Source: Puniceicoccales bacterium (GTDB lineage: Bacteria; Verrucomicrobiota; Verrucomicrobiia; Opitutales; UBA953). Taken from it: a stretch of DNA of 41,980 nt. Below are positions 15,825-39,290 of the stretch, piece by piece (the stretch's first letter is position 1; every line of letters starts with the position of its first letter). The notes below the pieces were generated by a model. The model was not told where the DNA came from, did not search any database, and saw nothing but the letters and a program-made list of their open reading frames with translations. The DNA lies in the NCBI GenBank assembly GCA_031285745.1, contig JAITVQ010000044.1, positions 1 through 41,980 of the forward strand. Direction: 5' to 3'. Both the position numbers and the translations under genes were made by a program.

Positions 15825-16607
15825 TTATCCGGCCATCTGCCCAGCCACCTCCATGCTACTGGAAGAACTGGACGCCGTTTCTGTCACCTCCTGTTTTTTT
15901 GCCGCCATCCCGCGCCGTTGTGCCACCGGCCATGCCACGGAGTCAATCCGGGCATTCCACTCGTTCACCAGCGCTGCGCCATTTTCGTCGGTTGGACTCA
16001 ATGCCATGTGTATCTCGATGCTTTTCACCAGCGATTGATAGGCCGCATCCATGGCTTCGCGGGCTAGGAGCACGTTCTTGTCGAACTGGCTTGCTCGCTC
16101 CGACAGACGTTTTGCCTCCAGATTTTTATACGACAGATTGTTTGCCTCCAATTCACTGACCCAATCGGTTAGGCTAAGCGTCTGCAAATCGGCAGAGGCT
16201 CCATCCTGCAAATCTTGGAGCATATTTGTCAGCGAGGCAGTTCTTTCGTTTCGAGACTTCCTCATCAGTGTCCGGTAATGCCAGAGGATGTTGTGCACCC
16301 TGATAGCCGCCTGACATTTGGCCGATTCGAAATGACGCAGATATGACGCTACTGTAGTACGCAGTCCGCGGAATGTCTTGCGACGTTTCTGGTCGAGTTC
16401 CTGAAGCTGCGCTGTGTGGACACTTCTGCGGATGATCTCCAGTGCAGTGTCCAGTTCATCGTAGCGGTCGTTATAGATCTCAACCAAGGCCGAAAAAATC
16501 TCGGACAGGTTATATTCGTTGACCAGTTTTGCTACTTTGTCGTGAAGCCCGAAGTGTTCCTCGTGACGTAAACGCGAAAGCGCAATGGTCTTAATCTTAT
16601 TTCTCAT
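15825..16607 (-). CDS. DUF6261-like helical protein, copy 1
   Basis: A 260-aa protein of unknown function, clearly homologous to the gene at 37796-38572. Shared blocks include RLR-EEHFG, YDELD-ALE, FLRH/YLRH, SADL and AYKNL/SYKNL; overall identity is roughly 35-40% by eye. The family looks like DUF6261, uncharacterised and mostly known from Bacteroidetes. The composition is almost wholly alpha-helical and charged, with no signal peptide or membrane helix. The tail is Ser-rich and ends in Met-Ala-Gly (SSSSSS...GQMAG), like the paralogue. Upstream, 49 bp before the start, lies a small hairpin (CCAATC/GATTGG, 16656-16676), and 180 bp before it begins a 42-bp-period hairpin array. No catalytic motif was found. 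Confidence 0.8.
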   Translation of the reverse strand: MRNKIKTIALSRLRHEEHFGLHDKVAKLVNEYNLSEIFSALVEIYNDRYDELDTALEIIRRSVHTAQLQELDQKRRKTFRGLRTTVASYLRHFESAKCQAAIRVHNILWHYRTLMRKSRNERTASLTNMLQDLQDGASADLQTLSLTDWVSELEANNLSYKNLEAKRLSERASQFDKNVLLAREAMDAAYQSLVKSIEIHMALSPTDENGAALVNEWNARIDSVAWPVAQRRGMAAKKQEVTETASSSSSSMEVAGQMAG

Positions 16608-16786
16608 GATATATGTATTTTTAGTATTATGTGTAGTTTATGATAGTTAATCATCCCAATCGGAATAATTGATTGGTAGTAAGCAGAAGAGGGATTTTCT
16701 GGGAAAAGGCGATGATTTTGTTGATGAAATTGTTAATTATAAGTTGTGCTGGAAGGTTACGGAAGTTTTTGCACCGTGATAGCCTT

Positions 16787-17074
16787 CTCCGTATTGATAC
16801 GGAGCTTCCATTTCACCTAGGGAGGTGTTTGAGAAGTAATACGGTGGCATTAATCCCGGTGAGATAGTTCCGCCGTATGCGTACGGAGACGCCAATTCAC
16901 GAAACATGGGTCTTCTGTCCTAATACGGAGGAGCGATTCCGGCCGGTGAGGTTTGGCCGTATGCATACAGTCATGCTGTAACAGCTGGCATGAGGTTTCC
17001 GTATGGGTACGATGCAAACAAATCAGCTGATTTTGTCCCTCTGTATGTGTACGGAGGAGACTCGTTGCCCGGCA
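16787..17074. repeat. Array 1: seven 42-bp units, each with two palindromes
   Basis: This occupies most of the gene-free stretch 16608-17022 and runs into the end of the next ORF. The first palindrome type (CCGTAT..ATACGG core) is centred at about 16796, 16838 (decayed), 16880, 16923, 16964, 17005 and 17047, a 40-44 bp pitch. Best copies are CTCCGTATTGATACGGAG (16787-16804) and CCTCTGTATGTGTACGGAGG (17038-17057). Between them lie palindromes of unrelated sequence: CACCT/AGGTG (16814-16827), CCGGCCGG (16939-16946), TCATGC/GCATGA (16971-16993), AAATCAGCTGATTT (17020-17033) and TGCC/GGCA (17066-17074); those near 16860 and 16900 are weak. No frame is open through the array. The remaining 16608-16786 is AT-rich leader DNA. 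Confidence 0.75.
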
Positions 17075-17517
17075 GGGAAGGACATCAACTGGTAGGGTGT
17101 GCTGGTGTCGTTGTTGATGCCCATGTTGAAAATGAGGAACGGCGCCTCCTCATACATGCGGGCCTGCCAGAGAGTGTCGGCGTAGTTCTCAAACGCGATT
17201 TTGATGGTGAGCGCCTTGCCTTTGCCCAGCGCGTCGGAGATATCCTCGGAGGACCAGGTTATTTTTTCGCAGGCATCCTTGGATTGCAGTCCTCCGGCTT
17301 GGAAGTAGGCATAATCAATAACCTTTTGCCCCTTGGCGTTTTTGACAAAGTAAAGACCGGTATTGAGATTGAACCCAAGCTCGACCCGGTCGTTTTTCAG
17401 GTAAACGGAGTTGGGACCATCCGCAGTGCCTGTGGCCACAGTGACGTGGTTTTGAGCCAAGGCTGTGTTAAGATAAAAGACAAACAGGAGAAGAAATCCG
17501 AGCAGCAGTTTTTTCAT
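17023..17517 (-). pseudogene. Truncated secreted glycosidase-like gene (N-terminal domain only)
   Basis: The 164-aa ORF begins with a signal peptide (MKKLLLGFLLLFVFYLNTALAQ). A beta-sandwich-like segment (VYLKNDRVELGFNLNTGLYF, then MYEEAPFLIFNMGINND) resembles the N-terminal domain of large secreted alpha-galactosidase-type glycosidases, usually several hundred residues longer. No catalytic domain follows. Family-like sequence stops near SFPAGQR (about base 17065), exactly where hairpin array 1 begins, and the reading frame ends inside the array at 17023. In another frame of the array, PYxYG-like pieces recur every 14 codons but are broken by stops. I read this as a gene cut by insertion or recombination at the array. 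A short functional protein cannot be excluded. Confidence 0.6.
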
Positions 17518-17745
17518 TTTCGGAGGCAGGCTGGGTGAGTAGGCGAGGATGCTTCGTTGGGATGGTTAACGGAAACCTAGCCTAATGCTATTTGCCGCAA
17601 AAGAACATGGATAAAGCCATGAATTCTCTTGTGTGTTTTGCTCGTGGATGAGTGTGAGCTTCTGTTCTGATGATCCTATGGCTCAGCGACGGTGAGACTC
17701 CGGCGATTCCCGTCGAAGATGTTCCTGCGAAGCATCAATAAAATC

Positions 17746-17782
17746 AAGCGGCCAGGCTCCGAAAAACGAACCCTGGCCGCTT
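17746..17782 (-). terminator. Terminator of the grpE-dnaJ transcript
   Basis: An 11-bp stem AAGCGGCCAGG / CCTGGCCGCTT is followed on the - strand by a T-rich tail (TTGATTTTATT). A second, smaller hairpin (TTTCCAG / CTGGAAA, 17789-17807) sits directly after the dnaJ stop. The rest of the 304-bp gap 17518-17821 shows nothing recognisable beyond the likely promoter area of the truncated glycosidase gene. Confidence 0.8.
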
Positions 17783-17821
17783 TGAAAATTTCCAGGCAGG
17801 CTGGAAACTTCGCCATTTTTA

Positions 17822-18970
17822 CTAACCGAAGAATTTCCGGAATTTTTCCGCCCAGCTTTCGGAAACAGGATGCACGTCGTCGCCCGAGGCATGGGCAAAG
17901 GATTCCAGTTTTTCCCGCTGCTCCGGGGTAAGTTTTTTGGGAACGTCGATTTCGATGCGAACCATCTGGTCGCCGCGCTTGCCGCTGCGCAGGTTGGGCA
18001 TGCCTTTATCACGCAGGCGGAAGGTGGTGCCGTTGGAAGTCCCTGTCGGGATTTTCAACGAAGCCTTTCCGTCCAGGGTGGGGACTTCGACATTTCCGCC
18101 CAGGGCTGCGAGCGTGAATTTAATCGGAACCGTGCAGTAAAGGTCATCGCCGTTTCGCTCGTAAAGATCGTGCTCCTCGACGTGGACGATGATATAGAGA
18201 TCGCCCGCAGGGCCTCCATTGGGGCCAGCCGAGCCGTCGCCGCTGGAGCGGAGTTTCATACCGGTATCGACACCGGGGGGGACGCGTTTGGTGAGCGTGG
18301 CAGTCTCGACGGTGCGCCCCTCGCCCTTGCATTTTTTGCAGGGATTCTCGATAACGCTGCCCGAGCCTCCGCAAGTCGGACAGGGTTGCCGGATGGAAAA
18401 GAAACCGTTGGAGCGTACTACCTGCCCCTTGCCGTGACAGGTGGCGCAGGTTTTCCGCTTGGAGCCAGGCTCGGCTCCGCTGCCGTGACAATGGTCGCAG
18501 GCGACATGCCGCCGGTATTTGATGGTTTTTTCCGTGCCCTTGGCCGCTTCTTCCAGGGTAATCTTGAGGTCAAAACGGAGGTCGTCGCCACGTTGATCCT
18601 CGGGATCGGCGCCGCCTCCTCTGCCAAAAAACTCGTCGAAGATGCCACCACCTCCCCCTCCGCCGAACATTTGGCGGAAGATGTCCATTGGGTCGTGGAA
18701 TCCACCTCCCATGCCTCCGGGACCGCCTGCCCGTGGCCCAGAACTCCCCTCGAAGGCTGCTGCCCCGAATTGGTCATAGGTGGAGCGTTTTTGCGGATCA
18801 GAGAGAACCTCGTAAGCGTGGGAGACCTTCTTGAACATCTCCTCGGCAGACTTGTCACCCGGATTGCGGTCCGGGTGATATTTCATGGCCTGTTTACGAT
18901 AGGATTTTTTTATCTCATCGGCGGAAGCGTTACGCTCAACTCCCAGAAGCTTATAATAGTCGTCGGCCAT
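17822..18970 (-). CDS. dnaJ: Chaperone protein DnaJ (Hsp40)
   Basis: A full-length 382-aa type I Hsp40 that delivers unfolded clients to DnaK and stimulates its ATPase. The J domain starts at residue 3 ([13 protein letters not shown]) with HPD at 32-34. It is followed by a Gly/Phe-rich linker ([20 protein letters not shown]), four CxxCxGxG zinc repeats ([32 protein letters not shown]), and the C-terminal client-binding domains. It lies 52 bp downstream of grpE on the same strand, with a terminator after it. dnaK is not in this window, so the DnaK system is split across loci. No CIRCE-like heat-shock element was noticed. Confidence 0.97.
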
Positions 18971-19022
18971 TTTCTTCGGAAAAACTGTGATGCTGAAATC
19001 GGATTGGCAAAGTTATTGTGGC

Positions 19023-19640
19023 TCAGTTTGCCGGTGTTTCACTGCTTTCGGCGGCAGGACCTGTGGAGAGCGTGACGGAGGCCGGGCGGATGAGCCGGTC
19101 ATGGAGTTTGTAGCCGATGCGGAAGACCTCGGCGACATGGTGATCTGGAATGGTCGGGTGTGGCGCCTGGCTGAGGGATTCGTGCAGATTGGGATCAAAG
19201 AGTTCGCCGACTGGATTGATCTCCCGGAGCCCGTGTTGCTCCAGCGTGGTTTTAATCTGGTTGGCAATCATCTTGAAACCATCCGTGACGGGTTTGGCTT
19301 CGGGAAGGTTCTCGGCAGTGGCCAGCCCGATGCCCAAATTATCAAGGATGGGGAGCATGTCTTCCAGCAACCCCTGGGTGGCAAATTTGCGCAGGTCTTC
19401 CTTTTCACGGACCACCCGGCGGCGGTAATTGTCAAGATCGGCCAACGCCCGGGCATAGTGATCCTTGAGCTTGATGATCTCCTGCTCCGCCTTCGCAAGT
19501 TTGTCCTCGATGTCGCTCCCGGGAGCTTTTTCAGCCGTGCGGGTGGCTTCCGCCGAGGTGGCGGAAGATTCAGGTTCTGGAGTGGCAGATGTTTCGGGGG
19601 CGGTGTGGTCGGCAGGTGTCTTGTCGCTGTCAGTCGTCAT
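19023..19640 (-). CDS. grpE: Nucleotide exchange factor GrpE
   Basis: A 205-aa GrpE that swaps ADP for ATP on DnaK. An acidic, low-complexity Thr/Ser/Pro/Glu-rich N-terminus (first 45 residues) precedes a long coiled-coil helix (IEDKLAKAEQEIIKLKDHYA, then DLDNYRRRVVREKEDLRKFA) and the C-terminal beta domain (PNLHESLSQAPHPTIPDHHV, FRIGYKLHDRLIRPASVTLS). The ATG at 19640 was chosen, with an AAGAG just upstream; a GTG nine codons earlier is possible. It is followed by dnaJ, and the upstream AsmA-like gene ends 30 bp before it, so the three may share a transcript. Confidence 0.95.
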   Translation of the reverse strand: MTTDSDKTPADHTAPETSATPEPESSATSAEATRTAEKAPGSDIEDKLAKAEQEIIKLKDHYARALADLDNYRRRVVREKEDLRKFATQGLLEDMLPILDNLGIGLATAENLPEAKPVTDGFKMIANQIKTTLEQHGLREINPVGELFDPNLHESLSQAPHPTIPDHHVAEVFRIGYKLHDRLIRPASVTLSTGPAAESSETPAN

Positions 19641-19670
19641 GTCTCTTTTAAATATTTTTTTAAACACGGA

Positions 19671-20597
19671 TTATTTCTTTTCGTCTTTTTTGTTTCCGCC
19701 CAGCAGGCCGCCAATCGAGTCGGAGATGCCTTTGACGGCTTCATTGGCTTTTTCTCCGGCCTTGTTAATGACTTCCGTGGCTTTTTCCCCGGCTTGGATC
19801 ACGCGTCCGGTGGCTTCGGAGTAGATGCCGTTGAGCGTGCCGATGGCGAGGGCGCCGAGCCCTTTCGAATTGAGAACGGCGTCGATCTTGTCGTAGACCT
19901 TTTCCTTGATATTCTCGTCGGTGATATCGGTAAACTCCAGTTCGAACATATTCTCCGTGTCGGGAATGAGAGTCCCCTCGCTATTGGAACCATCGCCGAT
20001 GATGGCCTTGATGTGGTCCAGCTTGAGAACAAGTTTGTCGATTTTGAAGTGAATGGGCTTGGATTCTTTTTTGTCGGTCGGTTTTTCTTCAGGCTTTGGA
20101 GAAGTATCCTCGGATGCAAAGGCATTCTTGAAATCAAGGACGTTGTTGTCGGTTGCGTACTCGGTGGCCAGTTTTCCTTTGCCGACAAAGGTGAAGGCTT
20201 TCACATCGAGGATCACTTCTTTAACGTGATAGGTGTCGGTGAGGAAGCTGGGAATGCTGACCTCGGCCTTGACCTGGTTAATGTCAATGAAGTCCTTGTT
20301 GTGGAAGCGGGCCGGGTTGGTCAGCTTGATGTTCTTCAGGTCAACCCGTCCTGCGAAAAGGTTGATGTTGTTCTCTCCTACGACAAGGTCAGCGCCAGCC
20401 TTGTCCTTGATGACCCCGGAGGCAATCGCAGGCACCGAACGTCCGGCAATCCAGACACCAAGCGCCAGTGCGAGAATGAGAAAAAGGAGGAATCCCCCAA
20501 ATAGGACAAATAGACACCCTAATGTTTTTTTATAAAAGGGTTTCTTTTCCTTCTGATCCTTTTGGTCCTGTTTTTCCGTTTTTTCTTGTTTGTCCAT
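19671..20597 (-). CDS. AsmA-like single-pass membrane protein
   Basis: A 308-aa protein. The start at 20597 gives a charged Lys/Glu/Gln cytoplasmic tail (about 25 residues), then one membrane helix (about 29-52, LGCLFVLFGGFLLFLILALALG). The remainder lies outside the inner membrane. The segment VDLKNIKLTNPARFHNKDF, then IDINQVKAEVSI and HVKEVILDVKAF, has the alternating beta pattern of AsmA/DUF748-type periplasmic proteins, which form lipid-transport-like beta grooves. The C-terminus is an Ala/Gly/Lys amphipathic stretch (VINKAGEKANEAVKGISDSI). It is shorter than typical AsmA. It sits upstream of grpE with a 30-bp gap. The precise role is unknown. Confidence 0.7.
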   Translation of the reverse strand: MDKQEKTEKQDQKDQKEKKPFYKKTLGCLFVLFGGFLLFLILALALGVWIAGRSVPAIASGVIKDKAGADLVVGENNINLFAGRVDLKNIKLTNPARFHNKDFIDINQVKAEVSIPSFLTDTYHVKEVILDVKAFTFVGKGKLATEYATDNNVLDFKNAFASEDTSPKPEEKPTDKKESKPIHFKIDKLVLKLDHIKAIIGDGSNSEGTLIPDTENMFELEFTDITDENIKEKVYDKIDAVLNSKGLGALAIGTLNGIYSEATGRVIQAGEKATEVINKAGEKANEAVKGISDSIGGLLGGNKKDEKK

Positions 20598-20710
20598 GGA
20601 TGAAACAATGATGAATGAAGCCGAAATAGCAAGCAGGGTACCCGGCGTCAAGCAGGTGACTTAACCTTTTTTATGTTCAGGGGTTTGTTGTCCGGGAATA
20701 TTTCCAATAA

Positions 20711-20743
20711 AAAAGCCCTGCAGCTTGGCGCCGCAGGGCTTTT
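20711..20743 (-). terminator. Intrinsic terminator of the lipoprotein gene
   Basis: A perfect 11-bp stem AAAAGCCCTGC / GCAGGGCTTTT with an 11-nt loop lies 16 bp after the lipoprotein stop codon. On the - strand it runs into a T tract (complement of the As at 20709-20714). Confidence 0.88.
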
Positions 20744-20759
20744 AGGGCTAAATATCGGA

Positions 20760-21263
20760 TTATTCGGCGGCTGGAGGAGGTGCTTCAATCGAGCAGAGAA
20801 TTTCTTCACCAACGGTAAGGGCAGGGATATCCTGCTGGTTGGGGAGAAGTTCGGCAATGATGTCTTCCCCGTCTACTTCGACTACGCGGAGCTTGGCGGC
20901 CTTCTTTTGGTTGGATACGATGAGCATATCCCCGGGAGCGGGCTTGTCCATCCGCATCAGGCTGACAAGGCCGAGGTCGCCGCGAACTTCCTTGATATAG
21001 GCTCTGGCTGGATCTTCAGGAGCCTTGGGTACGACTGGTTCATCGGCGGCAGGCTTGTCTTTTTCCCAGCTATAGGCTCTGGTTTCCACGGGCTGCTGGA
21101 CTTGGGTATCGGGCTTGGTCGCAACAGTGCGGGCAATCGGGTTTCCGGAGCTGCCGGTGTTTCCATCTGTGCTCCAAGGACTTTTTGCCGTGGCGGCGTT
21201 GTCACCTGAAGAGCAACCGGCAAGCACAGCGGCCAGCGCGAGAAGAGAGAGCGTTTTTTTCAT
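20760..21263 (-). CDS. Small putative lipoprotein
   Basis: A 167-aa protein with a lipoprotein signal peptide: MKKTLSLLALAAVLAGCSSG, lipobox LAGC with Cys17 as the lipidated residue. A Ser/Gly/Asn/Pro-rich linker (about 20-85) leads to a small C-terminal beta domain (residues about 88-160, ARAYIKEVRGDLGLVSL, PGDMLIVSNQKKAAKLRVVE, EDIIAELLPNQ). That domain resembles small beta-barrel modules found in other exported proteins of this type of bacterium, but I cannot name a family. It would be anchored in a membrane facing the periplasm. It is monocistronic, with its own terminator, and divergent from hisG. Function unknown. Confidence 0.75.
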   Translation of the reverse strand: MKKTLSLLALAAVLAGCSSGDNAATAKSPWSTDGNTGSSGNPIARTVATKPDTQVQQPVETRAYSWEKDKPAADEPVVPKAPEDPARAYIKEVRGDLGLVSLMRMDKPAPGDMLIVSNQKKAAKLRVVEVDGEDIIAELLPNQQDIPALTVGEEILCSIEAPPPAAE

Positions 21264-21416
21264 GTGGGGGGCGTGAGAAGGGTATTGATGCGTTGTGCAA
21301 AGGTTTTTGGTGCACTTGTGAAGAGCCTAGGACGAAAAAACTGCGCCCAAAGTCAATACCCTTTTGCGGATTCTTTCTTGCCCCCGCCCTTGGGATTTGG
21401 TCTTTCGCTTCCTGCA

Positions 21417-22301
21417 ATGAGCACAACCACCCCATATGTAATGATAGGTCTGCCGAAAGGAAGCTTGGAGGAATCCACGCTGGGCCTTTTTGCCAAGGCG
21501 GGATATCCCGTGACCAAGAGTTCGCGGTCATACAAGCCGTCGTTCGACGATCCGGCCCTTGACGGCCGATTTGTCCGGGCACAAGAGATTTCCCGTTATG
21601 TGGAACATGGATTCTTTGATTGTGGATTAACCGGTTATGACTGGGTCGTGGAAAACAACGCCGATGTGGTGGAAGTCTGCGACCTGATTTACAGCCGGGC
21701 GTCAAATGTCCAAAGCCGCTGGGTGATTTGCGTACCCGAGGCATCCTCTGTCCAGACGGTAAAGGATTTGCAGGGCAAGCGTATCGCCACCGAGTTGGTG
21801 GAAAGTACCCGCCGGTTTCTGGCCTCGCACGGGGTGACTGCCCAGGTGGAATTTTCCTGGGGGGCGACCGAGGTAAAAGTACCCGATCTGGCCGATGCCA
21901 TCGTGGACTTGACCGAGACCGGCAGTTCCATCAAGGCCAACAAGCTGCGGATTGTGGATACCATCCTCAAGACAAACACCAAGTTCATCGCCAATAAGAA
22001 GGCTTGGGAAAATCCGCAAAAAAGGGCCAAGATCGAGGCCATTGCCATGCTGCTTCAGGCTGCGCTCAATGCCAGCACGCTGGTGGGGTTGAAGTTCAAC
22101 CTGCCCAAGTCCGAACTGGAGGTGGTTTCCACAAAACTGCCCGCATTGCGCAACCCGACCATTTCCTCGCTCTCCAATCCCGAGTGGATTGCCATCGAGA
22201 CCATCATCGACCACAAGATGGTTCGCGAAATCATCCCGACGCTCAAGGCCCACAAGGCCGAGGGTATCGTCGAGTATCCACTGAACAAGGTGGTATACTG
22301 A
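21417..22301 (+). CDS. hisG: ATP phosphoribosyltransferase, long form
   Basis: A 294-aa HisG catalysing the first step of histidine synthesis, condensation of ATP with PRPP. The start MSTTTPYVMIGLPKGSLEES gives the normal N-terminus; the longer upstream frame is not HisG-like. Core motifs are GLPKGSLEESTLGLFAKAG, FDCGLTGYDW and the PRPP-binding region around IATELVESTRRFL and VDLTETGSS. The C-terminal extension (about 215-294, VGLKFNLPKSELEVVSTKLP to GIVEYPLNKVVY) is the regulatory ACT-like domain of the long form, which confers feedback inhibition by histidine and needs no HisZ. No other his genes are nearby. An inverted-repeat element starts 6 bp after its stop codon. Confidence 0.96.
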   Translation: MSTTTPYVMIGLPKGSLEESTLGLFAKAGYPVTKSSRSYKPSFDDPALDGRFVRAQEISRYVEHGFFDCGLTGYDWVVENNADVVEVCDLIYSRASNVQSRWVICVPEASSVQTVKDLQGKRIATELVESTRRFLASHGVTAQVEFSWGATEVKVPDLADAIVDLTETGSSIKANKLRIVDTILKTNTKFIANKKAWENPQKRAKIEAIAMLLQAALNASTLVGLKFNLPKSELEVVSTKLPALRNPTISSLSNPEWIAIETIIDHKMVREIIPTLKAHKAEGIVEYPLNKVVY

Positions 22302-22306
22302 CACAA

Positions 22307-22379
22307 ATAAGAAATGAGAAATACGGAATAAGAAACGGCTCCGTGAGCCTTGGCTTATTTTTGATTTCTCATTTCTTAT
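22307..22379. repeat. 73-bp inverted-repeat element between hisG and aguB
   Basis: Two 16-bp arms are exact reverse complements: ATAAGAAATGAGAAAT at 22307-22322 and ATTTCTCATTTCTTAT at 22364-22379. Between them is a short hairpin GGCTC-CGT-GAGCC (22337-22349). The right arm ends 12 bp before the aguB start codon, so it forms the leader of aguB. It resembles a small non-autonomous or MITE-like element, or a long cruciform; no target duplication was identified. Confidence 0.75.
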
Positions 22380-22391
22380 CTCTTATTTCCC

Positions 22392-23261: not shown

Positions 23262-23269
23262 AAAATAAT

Positions 23270-23399
23270 GGACAGGATGACAGGATTTACAGGATGACAC
23301 TAATTCTTACCATATCTTGGCGAATAAAGGATTACATTTGTTTCAATAGATTAATTTGTACTTACCGAAGGCCATCCTGTAAATCCTGTCATCCTGTCC
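23270..23399. repeat. Inverted pair of 26-bp repeats downstream of aguB
   Basis: A 26-bp sequence beginning ATCCTGTAAATCCTGTC occurs at 23374-23399 on the + strand and as its exact reverse complement at 23270-23295. The 78-bp AT-rich centre holds no gene. The unit is internally repetitive (ATCCTGT is repeated within it). The right copy ends 16 bp before the GxxExxY start codon. A third, direct copy at 23827-23852 closes the other side of that gene. Confidence 0.9.
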
Positions 23400-23415
23400 A
23401 ATTTTATTTCTACTA

Positions 23416-23817: not shown

Positions 23818-23826
23818 GGCTGAAGC

Positions 23827-23852
23827 ATCCTGTAAATCCTGTCATCCTGTCC
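23827..23852 (+). repeat. Third 26-bp repeat copy, abutting the aguA start codon
   Basis: This is an exact direct copy of the repeat at 23374-23399 and is inverted relative to 23270-23295. Two bases separate its end from the ATG of aguA, so the repeat occupies the place where a ribosome-binding site would be; no Shine-Dalgarno-like purine stretch is left. Direct copies on both sides of the GxxExxY gene fit a cassette or recombination boundary. Confidence 0.9.
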
Positions 23853-23854
23853 AT

Positions 23855-24883: not shown

Positions 24884-24933
24884 CAAGGGAAAGTTCTTCC
24901 CGATAAATTCGGCGAAATACTACCGACGCCAGT

Positions 24934-25569: not shown

Positions 25570-25685
25570 GCCCTGATACAACGTGAACTCTTAGGTCAGG
25601 CAAAGGAAAATGGAGTTTACTGGGGGCTTGTTCGATTTTGTTTCGACAATCTATTCTTCCCTGACCTACTCCTTGTTCAAAAAAC

Positions 25686-26039: not shown

Positions 26040-26061
26040 ATTTCCCAATACTCGAAAACGT

Positions 26062-28239: not shown

Positions 28240-28245
28240 CGGATT

Positions 28246-30588: not shown

Positions 30589-30716
30589 GCCTTGGGCGAC
30601 AGAATGCCTTGGAGGAAGTTCCTTTTATTTTTCCCCGTTAAATTTCCGTTAAATACCTTTGCTCAATTTGACTTCTTGAGGAACCATTGGCTTAAACTCT
30701 TTTCTCTACCATACTC

Positions 30717-32876: not shown

Positions 32877-32899
32877 AAGCAGGTACATTCCGGTAATCA

Positions 32900-32931
32900 A
32901 AAAAGCCTCCGCTTTTCAGCGGAGGCTTTTT
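32900..32931. terminator. Bidirectional rho-independent terminator
   Basis: A perfect 13-bp stem AAAAAGCCTCCGC / GCGGAGGCTTTTT with a 6-nt loop, in the gap between the convergent prolyl oligopeptidase and Gfo/Idh/MocA genes. It has T runs on both strands. Confidence 0.92.
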
Positions 32932-32951
32932 GTTGGTTGTTTTCAGAGAGC

Positions 32952-34391
32952 TTACGCAGTCGCAATACCCAACTGCTTGATGCTCTTCCAATCGCCCCGG
33001 GTGAAATCGGGAACGGCAATGGGGGTGCTGCCCGAAGCGACCGACTTTACCGAGAGCTCAATGATGGAACTCCACAACGCAGCATCGTAAACGGTGATGT
33101 CCGGAGTTATTCCCTGGCGGATGCAATCGAGGAGGCGATAGCTCGTTACAAAGTCCATGCCGCCGTGACCGCTATGCTTGGCGCGCTCTTGCAGTTGCTT
33201 CCACAGCGGATGCTGGAATTTCTCCCGCATTGCTTTCAGGTCACTGTCGTTGAGCCAGCTATGGCTGCTTTTGGCGGATAGACCATAATCCCCCGGCTTG
33301 TCCAGCGCGAGGCGGGCCGGATAGTCAAAGAACGTGGCGCCGGTGCCGCTAAGGGCATTGATGCGACTATAGGGACGCGGACTGATTACGTCGTGCTGGA
33401 TCATGATAGTGCGTCCCTTCTCAGTCTTGATGATGGACGTGTTCATGTCGCCGCAGATGTATTTTTCGCCGGTATGTTTGCCGTTGTTCGGCTTTCTTTC
33501 CTTCAGCGTCTTGGTGAGTCCTGACTCAAGTGAACTGACAGAGACGAGATACTTCAACTGGTCGCCGCGTCCGATGTCCATATATTGGCAGACCGGCCCG
33601 AGCCCGTGGGTTGGGTACAGATTCCCGTCCAGTTTCTTGTGATACTCACGCCGCCAGTCACCCTCGGAGCCGAGATGGAAAAGCACCCCGCGCAGATCGT
33701 GGATATAGGCGCATTCCGCATGGGTGAGTTCCCCGAAGACGCCGTTGCGGGCCATGTTCAGGACAAAGAGTTCGGAGGGACCATAGCAGCAATTCTCCAG
33801 GAGGACACAATGCTTCTGGTTGCGCTCGGAGGCATTCACGATGTCCCAGCATTCGTCGATGGTGACGACGGCGGAGACTTCGACAAAGGCATGTTTGCCG
33901 TTGTCCATGGCCTTTACGCACATCGTCGCGTGCCATTCCCAGGGCGTTACGATATATACGACGTCGATGTCGTCCTGCTCCGTTAGTTTTTCCCAGGCAT
34001 TCTCGGAGCCACCATAGACTTTTGGCGTCTTGCCGAATTTATTTTGAATCTTGGTGGCAGCTTTTTCAGCGCGACTTTTGACCAAGTCGCAGACGGCAGT
34101 GACATCGCAGAAACCGGTATTCAGTACGTCATTGAGGAGGGTGTTGCCGCGTCCGCCCATGCCGATAAAGGCGACCCGTACCCGGTCGATGGGCTTGGTG
34201 GTCAGGTTGTAGACAGGCCGTTGTCCAGACGGCCGGGGCCGGGTGAGGCTGATATCGCGGACGCTGCTGTGCAGGTCGCCCCGGGCTCCGTAGAGCGAGG
34301 GTGAGGTAATGCCGGACAGACCCAGGCCCAGCCCAGCCAGAGCAGTTGCCTTGAGGAAGTTCCGGCGGGAGTTTTCAGGTGCGTTTTTCAT
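32952..34391 (-). CDS. TAT-exported Gfo/Idh/MocA-family protein, GH109-like
   Basis: A 479-aa NAD-dependent oxidoreductase-fold protein. A twin-arginine leader opens it (SRRNFLKATALAGLGLGLSG). The Rossmann motif is RVAFIGMGGRGNTL (about residue 74), followed by CDVTAVCDL and the active-site strand VYIVTPWEWHATMCVKAMDN and GKHAFVEVSAV. The segment CAYIHDLRGVLF and YPTHGLGPVCQYMDIGRGD match GH109-type enzymes, which use tightly bound NAD in a redox-assisted mechanism to cleave alpha-N-acetylgalactosaminides. The TAT leader fits, since the cofactor must be loaded before export. Other Gfo/Idh/MocA activities remain possible. It is upstream of the shared terminator and stands alone. Confidence 0.85.
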   Translation of the reverse strand: MKNAPENSRRNFLKATALAGLGLGLSGITSPSLYGARGDLHSSVRDISLTRPRPSGQRPVYNLTTKPIDRVRVAFIGMGGRGNTLLNDVLNTGFCDVTAVCDLVKSRAEKAATKIQNKFGKTPKVYGGSENAWEKLTEQDDIDVVYIVTPWEWHATMCVKAMDNGKHAFVEVSAVVTIDECWDIVNASERNQKHCVLLENCCYGPSELFVLNMARNGVFGELTHAECAYIHDLRGVLFHLGSEGDWRREYHKKLDGNLYPTHGLGPVCQYMDIGRGDQLKYLVSVSSLESGLTKTLKERKPNNGKHTGEKYICGDMNTSIIKTEKGRTIMIQHDVISPRPYSRINALSGTGATFFDYPARLALDKPGDYGLSAKSSHSWLNDSDLKAMREKFQHPLWKQLQERAKHSGHGGMDFVTSYRLLDCIRQGITPDITVYDAALWSSIIELSVKSVASGSTPIAVPDFTRGDWKSIKQLGIATA

Positions 34392-34488
34392 GGTGTGATA
34401 TGTTTAGTGAGATGTATCGGTTGCCTGTGTGTACAAAGCTTCCACCCCTAAATTCCCGGTGGTTTTTAATCCTGACCGAAAAAAATGA

Positions 34489-35961
34489 TTATTTTTCACT
34501 AACGGCTTCTCGCTTGGCATTTTCGTAGGGTGCATTGAGGAAGATCAGCGTGTCCGGGTCACGCAAGGCGTGCCGTTCGACGAAATCGAAGTTGTCGGAA
34601 TAGGTGAGCAATTCGTTGTCCTTTATTTTCCAGCGGGCATTACTGAATCCCATCGGGGCGGTGACGCCGTCGCGGAGAAGCTGGGCGGTGCCGTCCGGGA
34701 GGAAGCGGCGCTCGTAGCGATAGCCGCCGTAAGGATAAAACCAACTGCCGATAAAGTCCTTGGCCGTGGCGTGGAGGATGAATCCCTCCTCGAGCTGCAA
34801 GATGCCGATGTAGGGATGGGCGAGACCGGGTGTTTCCAGCGACGGGGCGTCCAAGGTCGCCTCAAGGGTCCATTGCCCGTTGGAGAAATTGTCCTGGGAG
34901 ACATTCAATCGGAAAACATTGTCCGAGCTGACCCCGGCGGCGGCCCGGGTGAGTCCGGTGTGTGCGTCGCGGGCGATTTCCTGTCCGTCGCGCAGCAAAC
35001 GCACCTGGCTGATTCTGACGCTGCCGGGACCTTGGAATGATTTGAAGATGGCGATGTATTCGGCGGATTTCCAAATCAGGTGCGAGACGTCCGCCGAGAA
35101 TTGCAGAGTCTTGCCGGGCATGGCTTCCCAGCGGAAATCGCGTGTGGGAATGCGCCGGATGAATTTTTCCCGGTTCAGCGGGACGGATTGCGCTTCCCCG
35201 GAAACCGGCATGGCGAGGGCTTGGTTGGCGAAGAGCGAGAGCACCTCCTTGTCCGAGGTGCGTTGTACCTTGATCTCGCCCTCGAAAACCCCGACCTCCG
35301 CGTTGCCGTCATGCGCGACATCCATGGCAAACTCGGTGCCGATGTCGGTGATTTTTCCGTGGGCGTAGTCGACGGAGAATCCGGTGGCGACAGGAGGCAC
35401 GTACGCGACCAGTTTGCCGTAGTCGAGCTTGCCTGTGTTTTGCCCGGTGATCGAGAAGTGACACGGGCCTTGGACTGTAACCCGCACGCCGTTGCCGTAA
35501 GTGACTTCAGCCAGTCCTGCGCGCAAGGCGAGGTAATCAGGAGCAAGGCCATTGTCTGTCAGGCTGGCCGACACCGATTTATCCCAGATAACTCCGACGA
35601 GCCCTGTGACCCGGGCAGCGGTTTGGATCGGTGGAGGCGCTGGAGAAAAGATTTTGGCCCCGAATATGCCCAGACCCAAGACAACTGCCGCTGCAAATCC
35701 GGTGGAGAATGTGGCAAGCCGCCTGTACCAGACGATATTCGATTTTGTCGCCACAACGGGTTTCTCGGGAGAACCGGTTTTCCCGTCAAAGAATGCCTCG
35801 ATCAATGCCGAGTCGTGCACGGAGGAAATGAACCATTCGCGGGCTGCATCGTTGGCGAGCAATGTCTCAAGCTTTGCAAGCTCGGCATCCGAAAGCGAGC
35901 CGGAATCGATCAGCTTGTCGGTTAGTGCGCGCAGTGTCTTTACTGGAAATTCGTTATTCAT
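34489..35961 (-). CDS. FecR-like anti-sigma regulator, copy 1
   Basis: A 490-aa single-pass membrane protein. The N-terminal 80 residues face the cytoplasm and would bind the sigma factor (LTDKLIDSGSLSDAELAKLE, then ANDAAREWFISSVHD). A membrane helix (about 82-104) follows. The periplasmic FecR domain includes ALRAGLAEVTYGNGVRVTVQ and HGKITDIGTEFAMDVAHDG with VGVFEGEIKVQ. The C-terminal domain, from about residue 400 (IGSWFYPYGGYRYERRFLPD), is shared with the second copy at 40004-41527 and ends in a DTLIFLNAPYENAKRE motif. Its start overlaps the sigma-factor gene by 8 bp, so the two are translationally coupled. It probably holds the sigma factor inactive until an outside signal arrives. Confidence 0.85.
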   Translation of the reverse strand: MNNEFPVKTLRALTDKLIDSGSLSDAELAKLETLLANDAAREWFISSVHDSALIEAFFDGKTGSPEKPVVATKSNIVWYRRLATFSTGFAAAVVLGLGIFGAKIFSPAPPPIQTAARVTGLVGVIWDKSVSASLTDNGLAPDYLALRAGLAEVTYGNGVRVTVQGPCHFSITGQNTGKLDYGKLVAYVPPVATGFSVDYAHGKITDIGTEFAMDVAHDGNAEVGVFEGEIKVQRTSDKEVLSLFANQALAMPVSGEAQSVPLNREKFIRRIPTRDFRWEAMPGKTLQFSADVSHLIWKSAEYIAIFKSFQGPGSVRISQVRLLRDGQEIARDAHTGLTRAAAGVSSDNVFRLNVSQDNFSNGQWTLEATLDAPSLETPGLAHPYIGILQLEEGFILHATAKDFIGSWFYPYGGYRYERRFLPDGTAQLLRDGVTAPMGFSNARWKIKDNELLTYSDNFDFVERHALRDPDTLIFLNAPYENAKREAVSEK

Positions 35962-36493
35962 CGGAGTGCTTCAGGCGTTTGGTGATGCAGTGCTTGAGAC
36001 GAAATCGAATGCGGGAGAGTGTCTTGTGGATGGTGTTGGCCGCTTTCTGGATATCTGATGAAAGGGCAGTAAGATTTTTCTTCTGGAAATATTTTAATCG
36101 CAACAGCGCCAGGTCACCTTCGGGCAGCAACTCTAGGCAGACTTTCAGGGCATCGAAACGGCGGTCGGCATGTTCGCCGAAGGCATCGGATTCTCCGGCG
36201 ATTTTTTCAGTCAACTCCTCGGAGAAGCAGACTTTTTTTTCCCGCTGCAGGTCACGCCGCTTGGCGAGAACCTTGAAACGGGCGGCGCTGAATGCCCAAG
36301 CCCGAAAGTTGGTGCCCGGTTGGAAGTCGGCCCGGCGTTCCCAGAGAAAAAGCATGGTATCCTGCAGGATTTCATCCGCCAGGGCCTGATTTGGGAAAAG
36401 CGTCAGGACATAGGCGCTTAGTCCATGCCGGATCGAATCGATTTCCCGGGAAAATTCGACTTCGTTCAGGCATTGTGGTGATGCTTCGGGCAT
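35954..36493 (-). CDS. ECF-type RNA polymerase sigma factor, copy 1
   Basis: A 179-aa extracytoplasmic-function sigma factor. Region 2 is visible as LSAYVLTLFPNQALADEILQ, DTMLFLWERRADF and NFRAWAFSAARFKVLAKRRD. Region 4 is CLELLPEGDLALLRLKYFQK with a helix-turn-helix in SSDIQKAANTIHKTLSRIRF. It overlaps the FecR-like gene by 8 bp. The upstream region 36494-36647 is gene-free and must hold the promoter, possibly autoregulated. Targets are unknown; the PEP-CTERM gene 220 bp upstream is one candidate. Confidence 0.92.
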   Translation of the reverse strand: MPEASPQCLNEVEFSREIDSIRHGLSAYVLTLFPNQALADEILQDTMLFLWERRADFQPGTNFRAWAFSAARFKVLAKRRDLQREKKVCFSEELTEKIAGESDAFGEHADRRFDALKVCLELLPEGDLALLRLKYFQKKNLTALSSDIQKAANTIHKTLSRIRFRLKHCITKRLKHSDE

Positions 36494-36647
36494 GTCTCGT
36501 TCCTAAGACATACCAAACCGGGAAATGTCCTGACAAAAAAATGGATTTATTTGGAAAAAATGGGGCCGCCAGCGCTCCCAGTGAGGAATTCCCGGTTTCT
36601 ATCAGTTGCTTTATGCAGCTATTTCAGGGAAGCATTGGATAATAAAA

Positions 36648-36672
36648 GGCCTCCACCTTGTGAGTGGAGGTC
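36648..36672 (-). terminator. Terminator of the second PEP-CTERM gene
   Basis: A stem of CCTCCAC / GTGGAGG (extended by one more outer pair after a mismatch) around a 7-nt loop; on the - strand it runs into TTTTATTAT. It lies 43 bp after the PEP-CTERM stop codon. Confidence 0.8.
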
Positions 36673-36714
36673 TCGATGAAGAAGAACCGAGGAATTAGCC
36701 AGAAAGCCAAGAAT

Positions 36715-37554
36715 CTAACTGTGCTTGCGACGGCGAACAGCCAAGGCGACTCCCAAGGCCAACACTCCGCCTGCCAGTGCGTAGGTGGAAGGTTCGGGGA
36801 TGGCTTCAATACCAATGGCTTGAATGGAAGCCTTAGTAGCGGTTCCGGAATATGTCACTGTGACATCCGTGTCTGACGCCACAAAGTCAAGACGAGTAAA
36901 TCCCTGCAATTCACTAACTGAACTTCCGTAAAATCCCTTGGCGGCAAGTGAATCGCTGCCAACTGTTGGAGTCAGGTCTCCTACGAGAGTTGATACCGAG
37001 CCAACGCCATTGGTTACGAACATGGAATAGGCATCAAGTGTATTAACTCCAGTAATCGTAACTGTCTTTTGATTGTTGTTTCCATCTCCACTATTTCCGC
37101 AGAGCAGGAAGATGGAATAGCTCTGATCCTTGATCAACCCACTGAGGGTGACGCTGACGGATGTACAGCCAACAAGGCCATATTGGCCAATTATATTGGC
37201 ATCGGTCATTCCTGTATAGGCATTCCATGCTGCCATGGCGTTGGTGTCAGCACCTATAGCCAATCCTGCGCCATATCCAGTTTGCGGATTCCCAGGGTTA
37301 CCACCGGTTACTGCGGCAGAGATTGTGTACGAGGTTGCGGCACCGTTTATATCGTATAACAAGCCGGTTACTCCGCTGACATCCGCACGTCCTGTTTGGG
37401 CGAAATAGTTGTAAGCCGTAGGTGTATCTGTGGCTCCAGAACCGGGGTTTGAGACACTTGCCCAAGCTTGTCCGAAGTTAACCAACACCATGGCGGCATT
37501 GGCACTTGCGGCCAAGCTCAATACGGAAGCTGAGATAAGAAGCAGTTTTTTCAT
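36715..37554 (-). CDS. PEP-CTERM sorting-domain surface protein, second gene
   Basis: A 279-aa exported protein: a signal peptide (MKKLLLISASVLSLAASANA), a Gly/Ser/Thr-rich body with predicted beta strands (YSIFLLCGNSGDGNNNQKTV, VSVTLSGLI), and a C-terminal sorting tail IPEPSTYALAGGVLALGVAL followed by AVRRRKHS. The tail would be processed by an exosortase elsewhere in the genome. The body is unrelated in sequence to the first PEP-CTERM protein. It lies upstream of an ECF sigma/FecR pair on the same strand, with a terminator between them. Confidence 0.88.
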   Translation of the reverse strand: MKKLLLISASVLSLAASANAAMVLVNFGQAWASVSNPGSGATDTPTAYNYFAQTGRADVSGVTGLLYDINGAATSYTISAAVTGGNPGNPQTGYGAGLAIGADTNAMAAWNAYTGMTDANIIGQYGLVGCTSVSVTLSGLIKDQSYSIFLLCGNSGDGNNNQKTVTITGVNTLDAYSMFVTNGVGSVSTLVGDLTPTVGSDSLAAKGFYGSSVSELQGFTRLDFVASDTDVTVTYSGTATKASIQAIGIEAIPEPSTYALAGGVLALGVALAVRRRKHS

Positions 37555-37707
37555 GAGATATGTTATTAAAAGAGATTTTGCTGTCGGAAGGCCGGGTGAA
37601 CACGCGGTTAGGTGTTTTTAAACAACCCTCCGTAGTAATGTTCGCGAAATCCGATATTTTCTGACATTTATTTTTAAGAAGACTTATTGCTCATGGCTAA
37701 AACAAGG

Positions 37708-37776
37708 AAGGCACTGGAATGAGCCCTTGCCATCAGGCGTTAATTACCTGACGGCTTGGGTTGTCTCCAGTGCCTT
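37708..37776. terminator. Long two-layer hairpin after the second DUF6261-like gene
   Basis: An outer 11-bp stem (AAGGCACTGGA 37708-37718 / TCCAGTGCCTT 37766-37776) encloses an inner stem GCC-A-TCAGG / CCTGA-C-GGC with one mismatch. The whole 69-nt structure lies 19 bp downstream of the DUF6261-like stop. It may be the terminator, but it is unusually long and lacks a good T tract on the - strand, so a processed RNA end or a small structured RNA is an alternative. Confidence 0.6.
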
Positions 37777-37795
37777 GTGTTTTGCTGACGGTCTT

Positions 37796-38572
37796 TTATC
37801 CTGCCATGCCCGATGAGCTTGAAGAATCGGCTGTTGTTTCCTCCAGCTTGTTCTTTTGGGCGGCCATGATGCCGACTCGCTGGGCGACCAGATGATTGTA
37901 GTAATCAATCTTGTCGTTCAGGCGAAACACCAGACTGACCATGTTTTCATCCGCAGGCGTTAGTAATCCGAGATTGTTTAGCTCCCGGACCACGGCTTGG
38001 TAGGCGGCGTCCGCCAATTCGCGGGCTTCGTCCACCTTCTTTGCCGGATGCCGGATTTCTCGTTCCTCGGTGCGCGAGTCTTTCAGGTTTTTATAGGCCT
38101 GATTATGCGTCTCCAGTTCGGTCATCCACGAGGTTACCCCGAGCAATGTCAGGTCGGCGGACACCTGATCCCGCAGATCGCCCAGCATGTGGGTAATCCC
38201 GTATGTTCTTTTGTCGCGGGACATATGCGCCAAGTTTCCGTAGTGCCGAATGATGGCGATGACCCGCTCGGCCGCCCGGCGCTTGGGCGTTTCGCTGTGC
38301 CGGAGAAATCCCCGCACTGCCGAACGCAAGCGCCGGTAGGTGTAGAGCTGCAACGCATCTGCTTCCTTCACTTGCTTGGTGAAGGCACTCTGGCGGACGA
38401 CCTCCAGGGCATCGTCCAGTTCGTCGTAGTGTCCTTGGTAGATGGCCAACAGGGACACGAATGCCTCCGACAAGCTATAATCGCTGGTTACTTTGACGAA
38501 TTCGGCGTGGAATCCGAAGTGTTCTTCATTACGCAGGCGGGTGAGCCGCACATTTTTCACTATATTTTCCAT
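37796..38572 (-). CDS. DUF6261-like helical protein, copy 2
   Basis: A 258-aa paralogue of the gene at 15825-16607, with shared blocks RLRNEEHFGFHAEF, HYDELDDALEVVRQS, FLRHSETPKRRAAERV and AYKNLKDSRTEERE. It is predicted all-helical, cytoplasmic and charged. Like the first copy it ends in a Ser run plus a Met-Ala-Gly tail (SSSSSGMAG). A hairpin CTGCCA/TGGCAG (38611-38627) lies 39 bp before the start codon, comparable with the small hairpin before copy 1. Further upstream come a 137-bp MITE-like element and then a second 42-bp-period hairpin array. The family is uncharacterised; I see no enzyme motif. Confidence 0.8.
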   Translation of the reverse strand: MENIVKNVRLTRLRNEEHFGFHAEFVKVTSDYSLSEAFVSLLAIYQGHYDELDDALEVVRQSAFTKQVKEADALQLYTYRRLRSAVRGFLRHSETPKRRAAERVIAIIRHYGNLAHMSRDKRTYGITHMLGDLRDQVSADLTLLGVTSWMTELETHNQAYKNLKDSRTEEREIRHPAKKVDEARELADAAYQAVVRELNNLGLLTPADENMVSLVFRLNDKIDYYNHLVAQRVGIMAAQKNKLEETTADSSSSSGMAG

Positions 38573-38748
38573 ATGCTAACCTTTCTTTTATTATTCTGTT
38601 ATATTTGTCCCTGCCAATTGGTGGCAGAGATCAATGAAACATTGGAATAATGTTTATTTAAATGTCGAGGTGTTTTTTGTAAATTCATTCAAAAATCTAT
38701 GTGATACGTCGACGGGGTTGAGCTGTACCATATTACCGGAAAAGAGAG

Positions 38749-38885
38749 CCACGGATAAAACGGATAAGATAGAGGATAAAAGGATGGGGCGATTATTTTG
38801 TCTGAGTAGCCATCATTTCCGTCTTTTTCTCTCTTCATTGCTTTTTAACATCCGTGTTATCCTTCTCAAATCCGGATATCCGTGG
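38749..38885. mobile_element. MITE-like element A (137 bp)
   Basis: Bounded by 9-bp terminal inverted repeats CCACGGATA / TATCCGTGG. Internally it carries GGATAAAAGGATG-type repeats at the left and their loose complement (TTATCCTTCTC) at the right, and no ORF. A relative of the same length and terminal sequence lies at 41537-41669. It sits inside the 833-bp gene-free stretch between DUF6261-like copy 2 and the next sigma factor. The flanks 38573-38748 (DUF6261 leader with one hairpin) and 38886-38975 hold nothing else that I can name. Confidence 0.7.
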
Positions 38886-38975
38886 TCTATCTGTCTTGAG
38901 CGGACTTTATGTAACCAACTCTGGAACTGGTATTTTTGCCGGAAGCGAATGGGGCAAGTGCAAAAAATGAGCCCT

Positions 38976-39290
38976 TTCCGTTGCTGACGGAAGCATGAGG
39001 ACCATTGAAGATGGTCCCGTCGTCAGCGACGATGCTATGAAAGCTAATGGAGATGGCTCTTCCGTCAGTGACGGAAGCATGATCTCCAACGGAGTTGGCC
39101 TCTCCGTCAACGACGGCGATATGAACTCCAGTGGACTTGGTGTCGCCGTCAGTGGCGGCGGAATGAAATCCAATGGAAATAGCCCTTCCGTCAGTGACGG
39201 AAACATCATCTCCAACAGAGTTGGTCCTTCCGTCAACAACGGCGGAGGCTTTGCACTTGGTTTTGACACCTCCGTTCACGACGAAAATGA
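38976..39290. repeat. Array 2: eight 42-bp units, each with two palindromes
   Basis: The first-type palindromes are centred at 38984, 39024, 39068, 39110, 39152, 39194, 39236 and 39278, five of the seven intervals being exactly 42 bp. Best copies are CTTCCGTCAGTGACGGAAG (39059-39077), CGCCGTCAGTGGCGGCG (39144-39160) and TTCCGTCAGTGACGGAA (39186-39202). A second palindrome lies between each: ACCATTGAAGATGGT (39001-39015), CCAACGGAGTTGG (39086-39098), TCCAGTGGA (39127-39135), TCCAATGGA (39169-39177) and CCAACAGAGTTGG (39212-39224). The last two units are decayed. Three reading frames happen to stay open because 42 is divisible by three; I do not read them as genes. After the array, 39291-39405 is the leader of the sigma-factor gene. 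Confidence 0.85.

What the first reader, a model, noticed from the sequence alone, without database searches (positions are those of the whole stretch)
15825..39290. DUF6261-like gene plus hairpin array: a recurrent two-part unit
Both DUF6261-like genes (15825-16607 and 37796-38572) are read leftwards, each has a small hairpin 39-49 bp before the start codon, a strong hairpin after the stop, and a 42-bp array upstream at 180 bp and about 400 bp (about 265 bp if MITE-like element A is subtracted). The arrays share period, half-unit pitch and the CCGT..ACGG palindrome core, although their sequences differ. This could be a protein that binds or processes structured arrays, loosely like REP palindromes with their RAYT proteins. 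The function is unknown and the protein has no visible HUH or other catalytic motif.
Basis: partly seen in the sequence, partly recalled or inferred. Interest (0 to 1): 0.92.

Follow-up and report, generated by a model that had tools for sequence, protein, structure and literature searches.

The report
Helical protein with private palindrome arrays
A bacterial protein family of unknown function usually sits, in two distant bacterial groups, just downstream of its own array of short palindromic DNA repeats, and in the genome studied most closely relatives of those arrays are scattered elsewhere, which points to an undescribed kind of protein-plus-repeat system.

Summary
Both genes are PF19775/DUF6261; both arrays beat 1000 of 1000 shuffles. 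The window's genome has 16 DUF6261 matches, some cut by contig ends. Of 128 collected loci with at least 600 bp upstream, 101 have an array of period 40-44 bp within 1.2 kb upstream and 9 of 118 downstream; ordinary genes of two of these genomes have one upstream in 28 of 240 and 13 of 208 cases (same threshold, 0.47). The period is mostly 41 or 42 bp (119 of 140 array calls), while paralogous loci of the own genome have unlike array sequences. The arrays show no gene-sense wobble sign of RNA, unlike the covarying 5'-leader hairpin, and array 2 is not coding. For 6 of 7 arrays searched in the own genome, relatives lie on contigs without DUF6261. 20 stretches of DUF6261-free Bacteroidales had none. 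Best reading: an undescribed protein-plus-dispersed-repeat system, REP/RAYT-like in layout, with a helical non-HUH protein that probably binds its arrays as double-stranded DNA. Binding, spreading and benefit are inferred.

The parts
15825..16607 (-). DUF6261 gene 1 (260 aa)
   Evidence: PF19775 E 2.2e-32
15765..15793 (-). terminator-like hairpin after gene 1
   Evidence: 12 pairs then T run; z -6.3
16656..16676 (-). 5'-leader hairpin of gene 1
   Evidence: RNA fold; covarying across 14 paralogues
16761..17085 (.). array 1, period 42, core CCGTA..TACGG, weakly conserved
   Evidence: lag 42 identity 0.48, 0 of 1000 shuffles; no dispersed relative found
37796..38572 (-). DUF6261 gene 2 (258 aa)
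   Evidence: PF19775 E 2.8e-28
37708..37776 (-). long hairpin after gene 2
   Evidence: RNA fold z -7.9; not flagged as a terminator by the scan
38611..38627 (-). 5'-leader hairpin of gene 2
   Evidence: RNA fold; covarying across 14 paralogues
38911..39306 (.). array 2 element: about seven 42-bp units plus edge sequences shared with dispersed copies (outer edge ACCTCTAG near 39306; inner edge near 38911, shared with only some copies)
   Evidence: TRF, shuffles, relatives in C261, C200, C117, C160, edges compared

Best explanation
DUF6261 genes and the palindrome arrays upstream of them form one two-part unit. Shown: the association in two groups of bacteria; the 41-43 bp period with one strong palindrome per unit in a good part of the arrays and, in some, a second one half a period away; unlike array sequences at paralogous loci; array relatives elsewhere in the own genome without the gene; a covarying hairpin in the gene's 5' leader; no coding signal in the one array family tested. 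Inferred: the helical DUF6261 protein, probably as an oligomer, binds its own array as double-stranded DNA, with sites about two and four helical turns apart on one face. The dispersed arrays are further targets of the same paralogue, which makes the system a repeat-plus-protein partnership laid out like REP/RAYT, perhaps selfish, perhaps regulatory or chromosome-organising.
For: Upstream array in 101 of 128 loci (threshold 0.47; 96 at 0.5), and in 31 of 34 genomes at least one locus with an array on either side (0.47), against 28 of 240 and 13 of 208 control genes at 0.47. Same genomes compared: G609 10 of 12 DUF6261 loci against 27 of 240 genes, own genome 7 of 13 against 10 of 208, at 0.5. 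Lags 40-44 make up 129 of 140 array calls in a scan of lags 25-60 over the DUF6261 loci, a narrow range round four helical turns. Palindrome arms 2-7 bases from the centre are the most conserved columns (0.76-0.84). GT 127 against AC 185 mismatches, so no gene-sense G-U excess, whereas the leader hairpin, a positive control, has 20 G-U against 3 A-C. Dispersed relatives for 6 of 7 arrays. No arrays in 234 kb of 20 DUF6261-free Bacteroidales genomes. Differences spread over all codon positions.
Against: No binding data. The fold search gave nothing significant (best E 0.14) and no DNA-binding fold stood out, from a model of mean pLDDT 68 built on 3 sequences. Among 12 pairs with at least 74% protein identity, 5 have arrays that resemble each other hardly more than chance (0.64-0.72), which argues against strict sequence reading by the whole protein. 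The aggregate palindrome signal is moderate: median best phased score 0.54 against 0.47 in column-permuted arrays, and the half-pitch site (0.36-0.44 paired) is barely above a quarter-pitch control (0.34-0.42). Palindromes at a fixed pitch could equally be RNA hairpins; over all 136 arrays A-C exceeds G-T 341 to 207, so an RNA from the opposite strand is not excluded. Within-array covariation is no better than shuffles. 24 of 128 loci lack an array on either side at 0.47. In 100 kb of a Prevotella nigrescens replicon with one DUF6261 match in the search made only one weak array call (lag 44, 0.51) was seen, so dispersal is not universal.
Confidence: 0.4

Rival explanations
1. The arrays act as RNA: transcribed into chains of about 20- or 40-nt hairpins that DUF6261 binds or processes, as in TIGR-Tas or in type III toxin-antitoxin systems.
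For: Array upstream of the gene, several tandem units, locus-specific repeats; TIGR arrays have this layout and some clades carry palindromic stem-loop arrays (PMC12045711, passages). Arms conserved and about 3 central positions less so, as in a loop. A-C over G-T excess on the gene-sense strand (341 to 207 over all 136 arrays; 185 to 127 over 86) would be G-U on the opposite strand.
Against: No G-U excess on the gene-sense strand; the A-C to G-T ratio (1.46) is near that of a shifted control (1.26). No hypervariable spacers (least conserved linker columns still 0.50-0.52 identical). Period confined to 41-43 bp. Arrays dispersed without the gene. No Nop family listed in Pfam for 30 proteins.
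Confidence: 0.28
2. The arrays are mobile repeats moved by some other machinery, and DUF6261 genes merely use them as regulatory DNA or travel with them.
For: Copies of array 2 with a shared outer edge, 79-88% identical, lie on contigs without DUF6261. Arrays mostly end upstream of the gene's leader (a TTGACA-like block, though the promoter scans of the window were near chance).
Against: 20 sampled stretches of genomes without DUF6261 have no such arrays. The association spans proteins under 25% identical and arrays of unrelated sequence.
Confidence: 0.18
3. DUF6261 is the toxin or effector of a type III toxin-antitoxin-like module, with the array as RNA antitoxin.
For: Repeat array upstream of a single gene, hairpin between them, many copies per genome, one copy near conjugation genes.
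Against: The leader hairpin of the own-genome copies is not followed by a T run (alignment); no type III toxin family listed in Pfam; arrays occur without the gene.
Confidence: 0.08
4. The arrays are coding: 42 bp is 14 codons, and one frame reads through array 2.
For: Open frame of 166 aa over array 2; frame 0 open in three copies.
Against: Differences between three copies fall about equally on the three codon positions (14/21/17, 23/23/15, 17/17/20); units of 41 and 43 bp, common elsewhere, would break the frame.
Confidence: 0.02

Closest known systems
REP/REPIN elements with RAYT (TnpAREP)
   Same: One gene with palindromic repeats beside it whose relatives are dispersed, mostly between genes; repeats differ between systems; tandem copies occur (PMC8266576, passages).
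   Different: RAYT is an HUH/Y1 nuclease, usually described as one or few per genome (recalled); DUF6261 is predicted all-helical, without a Pfam transposase match, with 16 matches in the own genome and at least 12 in several others, and in the own genome paralogues have unlike arrays; units are mostly 41-43 bp.
TIGR-Tas (TasA type)
   Same: Tandem units with alternating repeats, upstream or downstream of a small protein gene without nuclease, repeats private to each locus, some arrays palindromic (PMC12045711, passages).
   Different: No Nop match; no 9-nt hypervariable spacers; arrays also dispersed without the gene; no gene-sense wobble signal.
Type III toxin-antitoxin (ToxIN)
   Same: A repeat array partnered with one gene (PMC8860590, abstract start in search listing; upstream position recalled).
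   Different: No known toxin family; palindromic arrays; dispersed copies.
PF19775 (DUF6261)
   Same: Both window proteins are members.
   Different: Pfam calls the function unknown, and no partner array was found in the searches of papers made here.

Membership tests
PF19775 DUF6261 | profile match over the curated cut-off | tested here: met
   112.6 and 99.2 bits against cut-off 27
RAYT / TnpAREP | HUH motif and catalytic tyrosine (Y1 transposase) | tested here: not met
   No transposase family listed for 30 DUF6261 proteins (HMMER's filters drop most matches above E 0.1); all-helical model. The HUH letters were not searched for as a motif.
RAYT / TnpAREP | repeats beside the gene with dispersed relatives | tested here: met
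   6 of 7 arrays searched, in one genome
RAYT / TnpAREP | conserved GTAG-type tetranucleotide before the palindrome | not tested
   no dedicated search made
TIGR-Tas | Nop domain | tested here: inconclusive
   no Nop match listed in Pfam; fold searches silent, but the model is weak and divergent Nop domains may escape
TIGR-Tas | two alternating repeats separated by variable 9-nt spacers | tested here: not met
   in the average over 71 arrays the least conserved linker columns are still 0.50-0.52 identical and no hypervariable block is seen; single arrays were not tested one by one
TIGR-Tas | array transcribed and cut into 36-nt RNAs | not testable with these tools
   needs small-RNA sequencing
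Type III toxin-antitoxin | endoribonuclease toxin of the ToxN/CptN/TenpN kind | tested here: not met
   no such family listed in Pfam scans
Type III toxin-antitoxin | RNA repeat that neutralises the toxin | not testable with these tools
   needs experiment

The most novel reading that the evidence does not exclude
DUF6261 and its arrays are a new class of genome-resident address system: many paralogues per genome, each an all-helical, non-HUH protein that recognises its own family of palindromic arrays phased at about four helical turns, with further arrays of that family scattered between genes, so that one genome carries many parallel sets of protein and address. The arrays keep pitch but change sequence quickly.
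Probability: 0.32. Interest if true: 0.95.

Novelty: categorically new. Interest (0 to 1): 0.82.

Why it matters
A family of unknown function, present in 32 of 295 sampled genomes of the order that holds a Bacteroides sp. MAG, gains a physical partner and testable hypotheses. If the paralogues read different palindromes at a constant pitch, they are natural orthogonal DNA or RNA binders, and the dispersed arrays a genome-wide set of sites. If instead the protein reads shape or spacing, the fast replacement of array sequence becomes the puzzle to explain.

Tried and rejected
Coding arrays: an open frame exists, but differences between copies of array 2 do not favour third positions. RNA hairpin test on the arrays: 86 of 136 arrays (best seed with at least 7 of 9 pairs) gave WC 1528, GT 127, AC 185, other 440, against a control shifted 10 bp (GT 254, AC 319), so no gene-sense wobble signal. 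The unfiltered version on 136 arrays gave GT 207, AC 341 and an earlier phased version GT 87, AC 107; composition alone predicts a ratio of about 1.1, so the unfiltered A-C excess is not fully explained. Within-array covariation: 156 compensatory pairs against 145 +- 16 in shuffles, no signal. Half-pitch palindrome in the aggregate: barely above a quarter-pitch control. Fold searches: no PDB match at E<=0.001; VIA Z 10.3 to an invertase inhibitor four-helix bundle is in the range that the tool calls common for helical bundles. Shared neighbour genes: the largest group covers 8 loci in mixed orientation and position, none recurrent. Viral contigs of IMG/VR: no confirmed relative; two records of the phage collection have one. 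PDB sequence search: nothing below E 0.5. PHROGs and NCBIfam: only weak matches (E 0.03 or more).

Rows dropped: duplicate loci (L017, L019-L033, L044, L057, L059) and sub-threshold L037 left 135 of the loci that my profile found; 7 of these had under 600 bp upstream and were left out of the 128; L039 was also left out of the array statistics as near-identical to L038. The 135 loci are not all DUF6261 genes of these genomes: one search scored at most 12 candidates per genome and cut its list, and besides the loci that it handed out I fetched 80 listed matches of my choice (two of them repeated loci already held). Column conservation uses 71 of 136 arrays (at least 7 of 9 pairs, 4 or more units), and its units were picked by identity within about 10 bp of the centre, so only the contrast inside that window and the values outside it are informative. 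One G609 control stretch was shortened, and own-genome control contigs were chosen, to leave out known DUF6261 loci. One search used a mistyped structure (one dot too many) and was redone.
Full report
THE THING ITSELF. Two genes of the window, 15825-16607 and 37796-38572, both leftward, belong to Pfam DUF6261 (E 2.2e-32 and 2.8e-28). Each has an array of 42-bp units upstream. Array 2 is found by TRF; both exceed all of 1000 shuffles. In gene sense, array 2 alternates CCGTC..GACGG with TCC..GGA palindromes, and array 1 centres on CCGTA..TACGG. Each gene has a leader hairpin and a hairpin after its stop.

THE OWN GENOME. The genome gives 16 DUF6261 matches in 299 contigs; four are partial, at contig ends, so the true number may be slightly lower. 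Of 13 copies with at least 780 bp of upstream DNA, 11 have a lag 42 or 43 peak of 0.45-0.66 over 168 bp; the highest of 30 random sequences was 0.41 over all lags. By the detector it is 10 of 13 at 0.47 and 7 of 13 at 0.5. L005 and L013 have none. Array sequences of paralogous loci resemble each other at most 0.65, with a null of 0.56-0.62; the pitch is what they share.

OTHER GENOMES. DUF6261 is sporadic: apart from the own genome, 1 of 37 relatives, and 3 over cut-off (4 with a match) of 386 genomes drawn from the phylum. It is found in 32 of 295 genomes of the order of a Bacteroides sp. MAG. No tool named the window's phylum; that it is not the phylum of Bacteroides I infer from 3 of 386 against 32 of 295. 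I collected 135 distinct loci, not all that exist. Of 128 with at least 600 bp of upstream DNA, 101 have a lag 40-44 array within 1.2 kb upstream at threshold 0.47 (96 at 0.5), 9 of 118 have one downstream (7 at 0.5), and control lags 31, 32, 34, 35 and 37 give 3 (1 at 0.5); 31 of 34 genomes have at least one locus with an array on either side at 0.47; 24 of 128 loci have none on either side. A scan of lags 25-60 over the DUF6261 loci gives 40:3, 41:60, 42:59, 43:7 and 11 at all other lags. Distant copies with arrays include one in another species of the genus, several in other families of the phylum, three of these with the array downstream, two of the three with the same score and probably copies, a copy near conjugation genes in Prevotella nigrescens (41-bp units right upstream of the gene), and two gut contigs labelled phage.

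BACKGROUND. Arrays are not confined to DUF6261. In G609, a single-contig genome of the Bacteroides order, 394 kb without DUF6261 held 29; in the own genome 343 kb held 11; in 20 stretches of DUF6261-free genomes of the Bacteroides order (234 kb) none; in order relatives of the window without DUF6261 (315 kb) 9, from three stretches, but there 85 others occur at other codon-multiple lags, in apparently coding, GC-rich DNA. Even in the array-rich genomes an ordinary gene has an array within 1.2 kb upstream in only 28 of 240 (G609) and 13 of 208 (own genome) cases at 0.47; at 0.5 it is 27 of 240 and 10 of 208, against 10 of 12 and 7 of 13 DUF6261 loci of the same two genomes, and 0 of 156 genes in the DUF6261-free set. 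These controls are samples, not whole genomes.

FAMILIES OF ARRAYS. Of 11 dispersed array calls in the own-genome sample, 4 match one particular DUF6261-adjacent array (0.79-0.94; null at most 0.63 over all 11), 4 are intermediate (0.67-0.71; two of these overlap in L253) and 3 match none. Array 2 of the window, searched in the own genome, has relatives of 79-88% identity in C261, C200, C117 and C160, and shorter ones in C265 and C56. Other DUF6261-adjacent arrays gave relatives at E<=0.001 on 15 (L009), 7 (L014), 2 (L002), 2 (L011) and 7 (L008) other contigs, the weaker of them 64-70% identical; array 1 gave only matches of 18-26 bp at E 0.068 or worse. None of these contigs is among the 15 that carry DUF6261. 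Several relatives sit at contig ends, where a gene could be missing from the assembly; others are well inside contigs, such as C261:2043 of 13753, C160:8654 of 28182 and C265:29892 of 47889. In G609, of 30 dispersed arrays only one clearly matches an array of the 12 sampled DUF6261 loci (0.84), one more is at 0.71, and two pairs match each other (0.82-0.87). Copies of array 2 share an outer edge, ACCTCTAG, and some an inner edge of about 63 bp. Flanking genes of the dispersed arrays that I scanned are ordinary or without a Pfam match (10 scanned; list), and DUF6261 has no recurrent neighbour.

ANATOMY OF A UNIT. Over 71 arrays, conservation relative to the main palindrome's centre is 0.76-0.84 in the arms (2-7 bases out), 0.60-0.66 at the centre, 0.50-0.52 in the linkers 11-12 bases out, and 0.57-0.61 at 14-18, where the arms of a second palindrome about half a period away would lie. 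Strong palindromes number 191 against 40 in one set of shuffled arrays. The aggregate is less clean: median best phased score 0.54 against 0.47 for column-permuted arrays, and pairing at the half-pitch site (0.36-0.44) is barely above a quarter-pitch control (0.34-0.42). So one palindrome per unit is well supported in a good part of the arrays, and a second only in some. Arrays turn over: among 12 locus pairs with 74-94% protein identity, 7 keep a similar array (0.78-0.95) and 5 do not (0.64-0.72) (in L091/L081 the kept array lies further upstream in one partner). In L088/L077 one palindrome (GTCTA..TAGAC to GTACTG..CAGTAC) has been replaced in the printed units while the other (CTGCA..TGCAG) and the 41-bp period stayed.

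DNA OR RNA. The 5'-leader hairpin of 14 own-genome copies behaves as RNA: all 9 pairs show changes on both sides, 88.8% of cells paired, covariation score 0.744 against 0.409 +- 0.044 with 0 of 500 shuffles reaching it, and 20 G-U against 3 A-C cells. The structure was derived from the same alignment, which favours it. The arrays show no gene-sense G-U excess; they lean the other way, which composition explains in part, so an RNA from the opposite strand is not excluded. There is no within-array covariation. Together with the narrow 41-43 bp range, close to four turns of B-DNA, this favours recognition as double-stranded DNA; that step is inference. Array 2 is not coding.

THE PROTEIN. The model (3 sequences, pLDDT 68, pTM 0.57) is all helices, with a confident core at about residues 61-170. 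No PDB match at E<=0.001. The most conserved positions over 126 sequences are R75 (Q in this protein), D72, A101, R184 and L153 in window-protein numbering. All of 30 proteins scanned match DUF6261, and no other family reached E 0.001.

LITERATURE. One paper of the library holds the word DUF6261 (search listing only) and none PF19775. Searches for palindromic or hairpin arrays (of the last, 10 of 27 hits were listed) showed no description of these arrays. The closest layouts are TIGR-Tas (PMC12045711, passages) and REP/TnpAREP (PMC8266576, passages).

VERDICT. It works like a REP/RAYT pair in layout and a little like TIGR-Tas in array design, but fails a defining feature of each as tested here. 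What the protein does to the arrays is open.

Noticed in passing
L034:430-1200 (G300:C27): The DUF6261 gene of G300 lies beside a CRISPR-like array (repeats of about 37 bp with spacers), with its own array on the other side.
   Followed up: no
L044:5780-8842: In a Bacteroides sp. MAG a 1020-aa ORF with a GLGGTGGK stretch near its start follows DUF6261 directly; it may be tubulin-like (recalled motif).
   Followed up: no
L256:9830-10783: The annotated start of the Prevotella nigrescens DUF6261 gene lies inside the upstream array; an ATG at 9968 in the same frame fits better.
   Followed up: partly
window 38755-38890: A palindromic MITE-like stretch with ATCCGTGG ends lies between gene 2 and array 2; similar sequence stands upstream of L006.
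   Followed up: no
L173:627-1958 and L252:3431-4810: Arrays in G609 and in the own genome each lie downstream of related amidohydrolase genes (56% identical), which may be chance or a shared site.
   Followed up: no
window 39406-39990: A sigma-70 region 2 ORF on the + strand starts just beyond array 2.
   Followed up: no
L257, L258: Two records labelled Bacteriophage sp. from human faeces carry DUF6261 with a lag 41-42 array; they may be bacterial contigs.
   Followed up: partly
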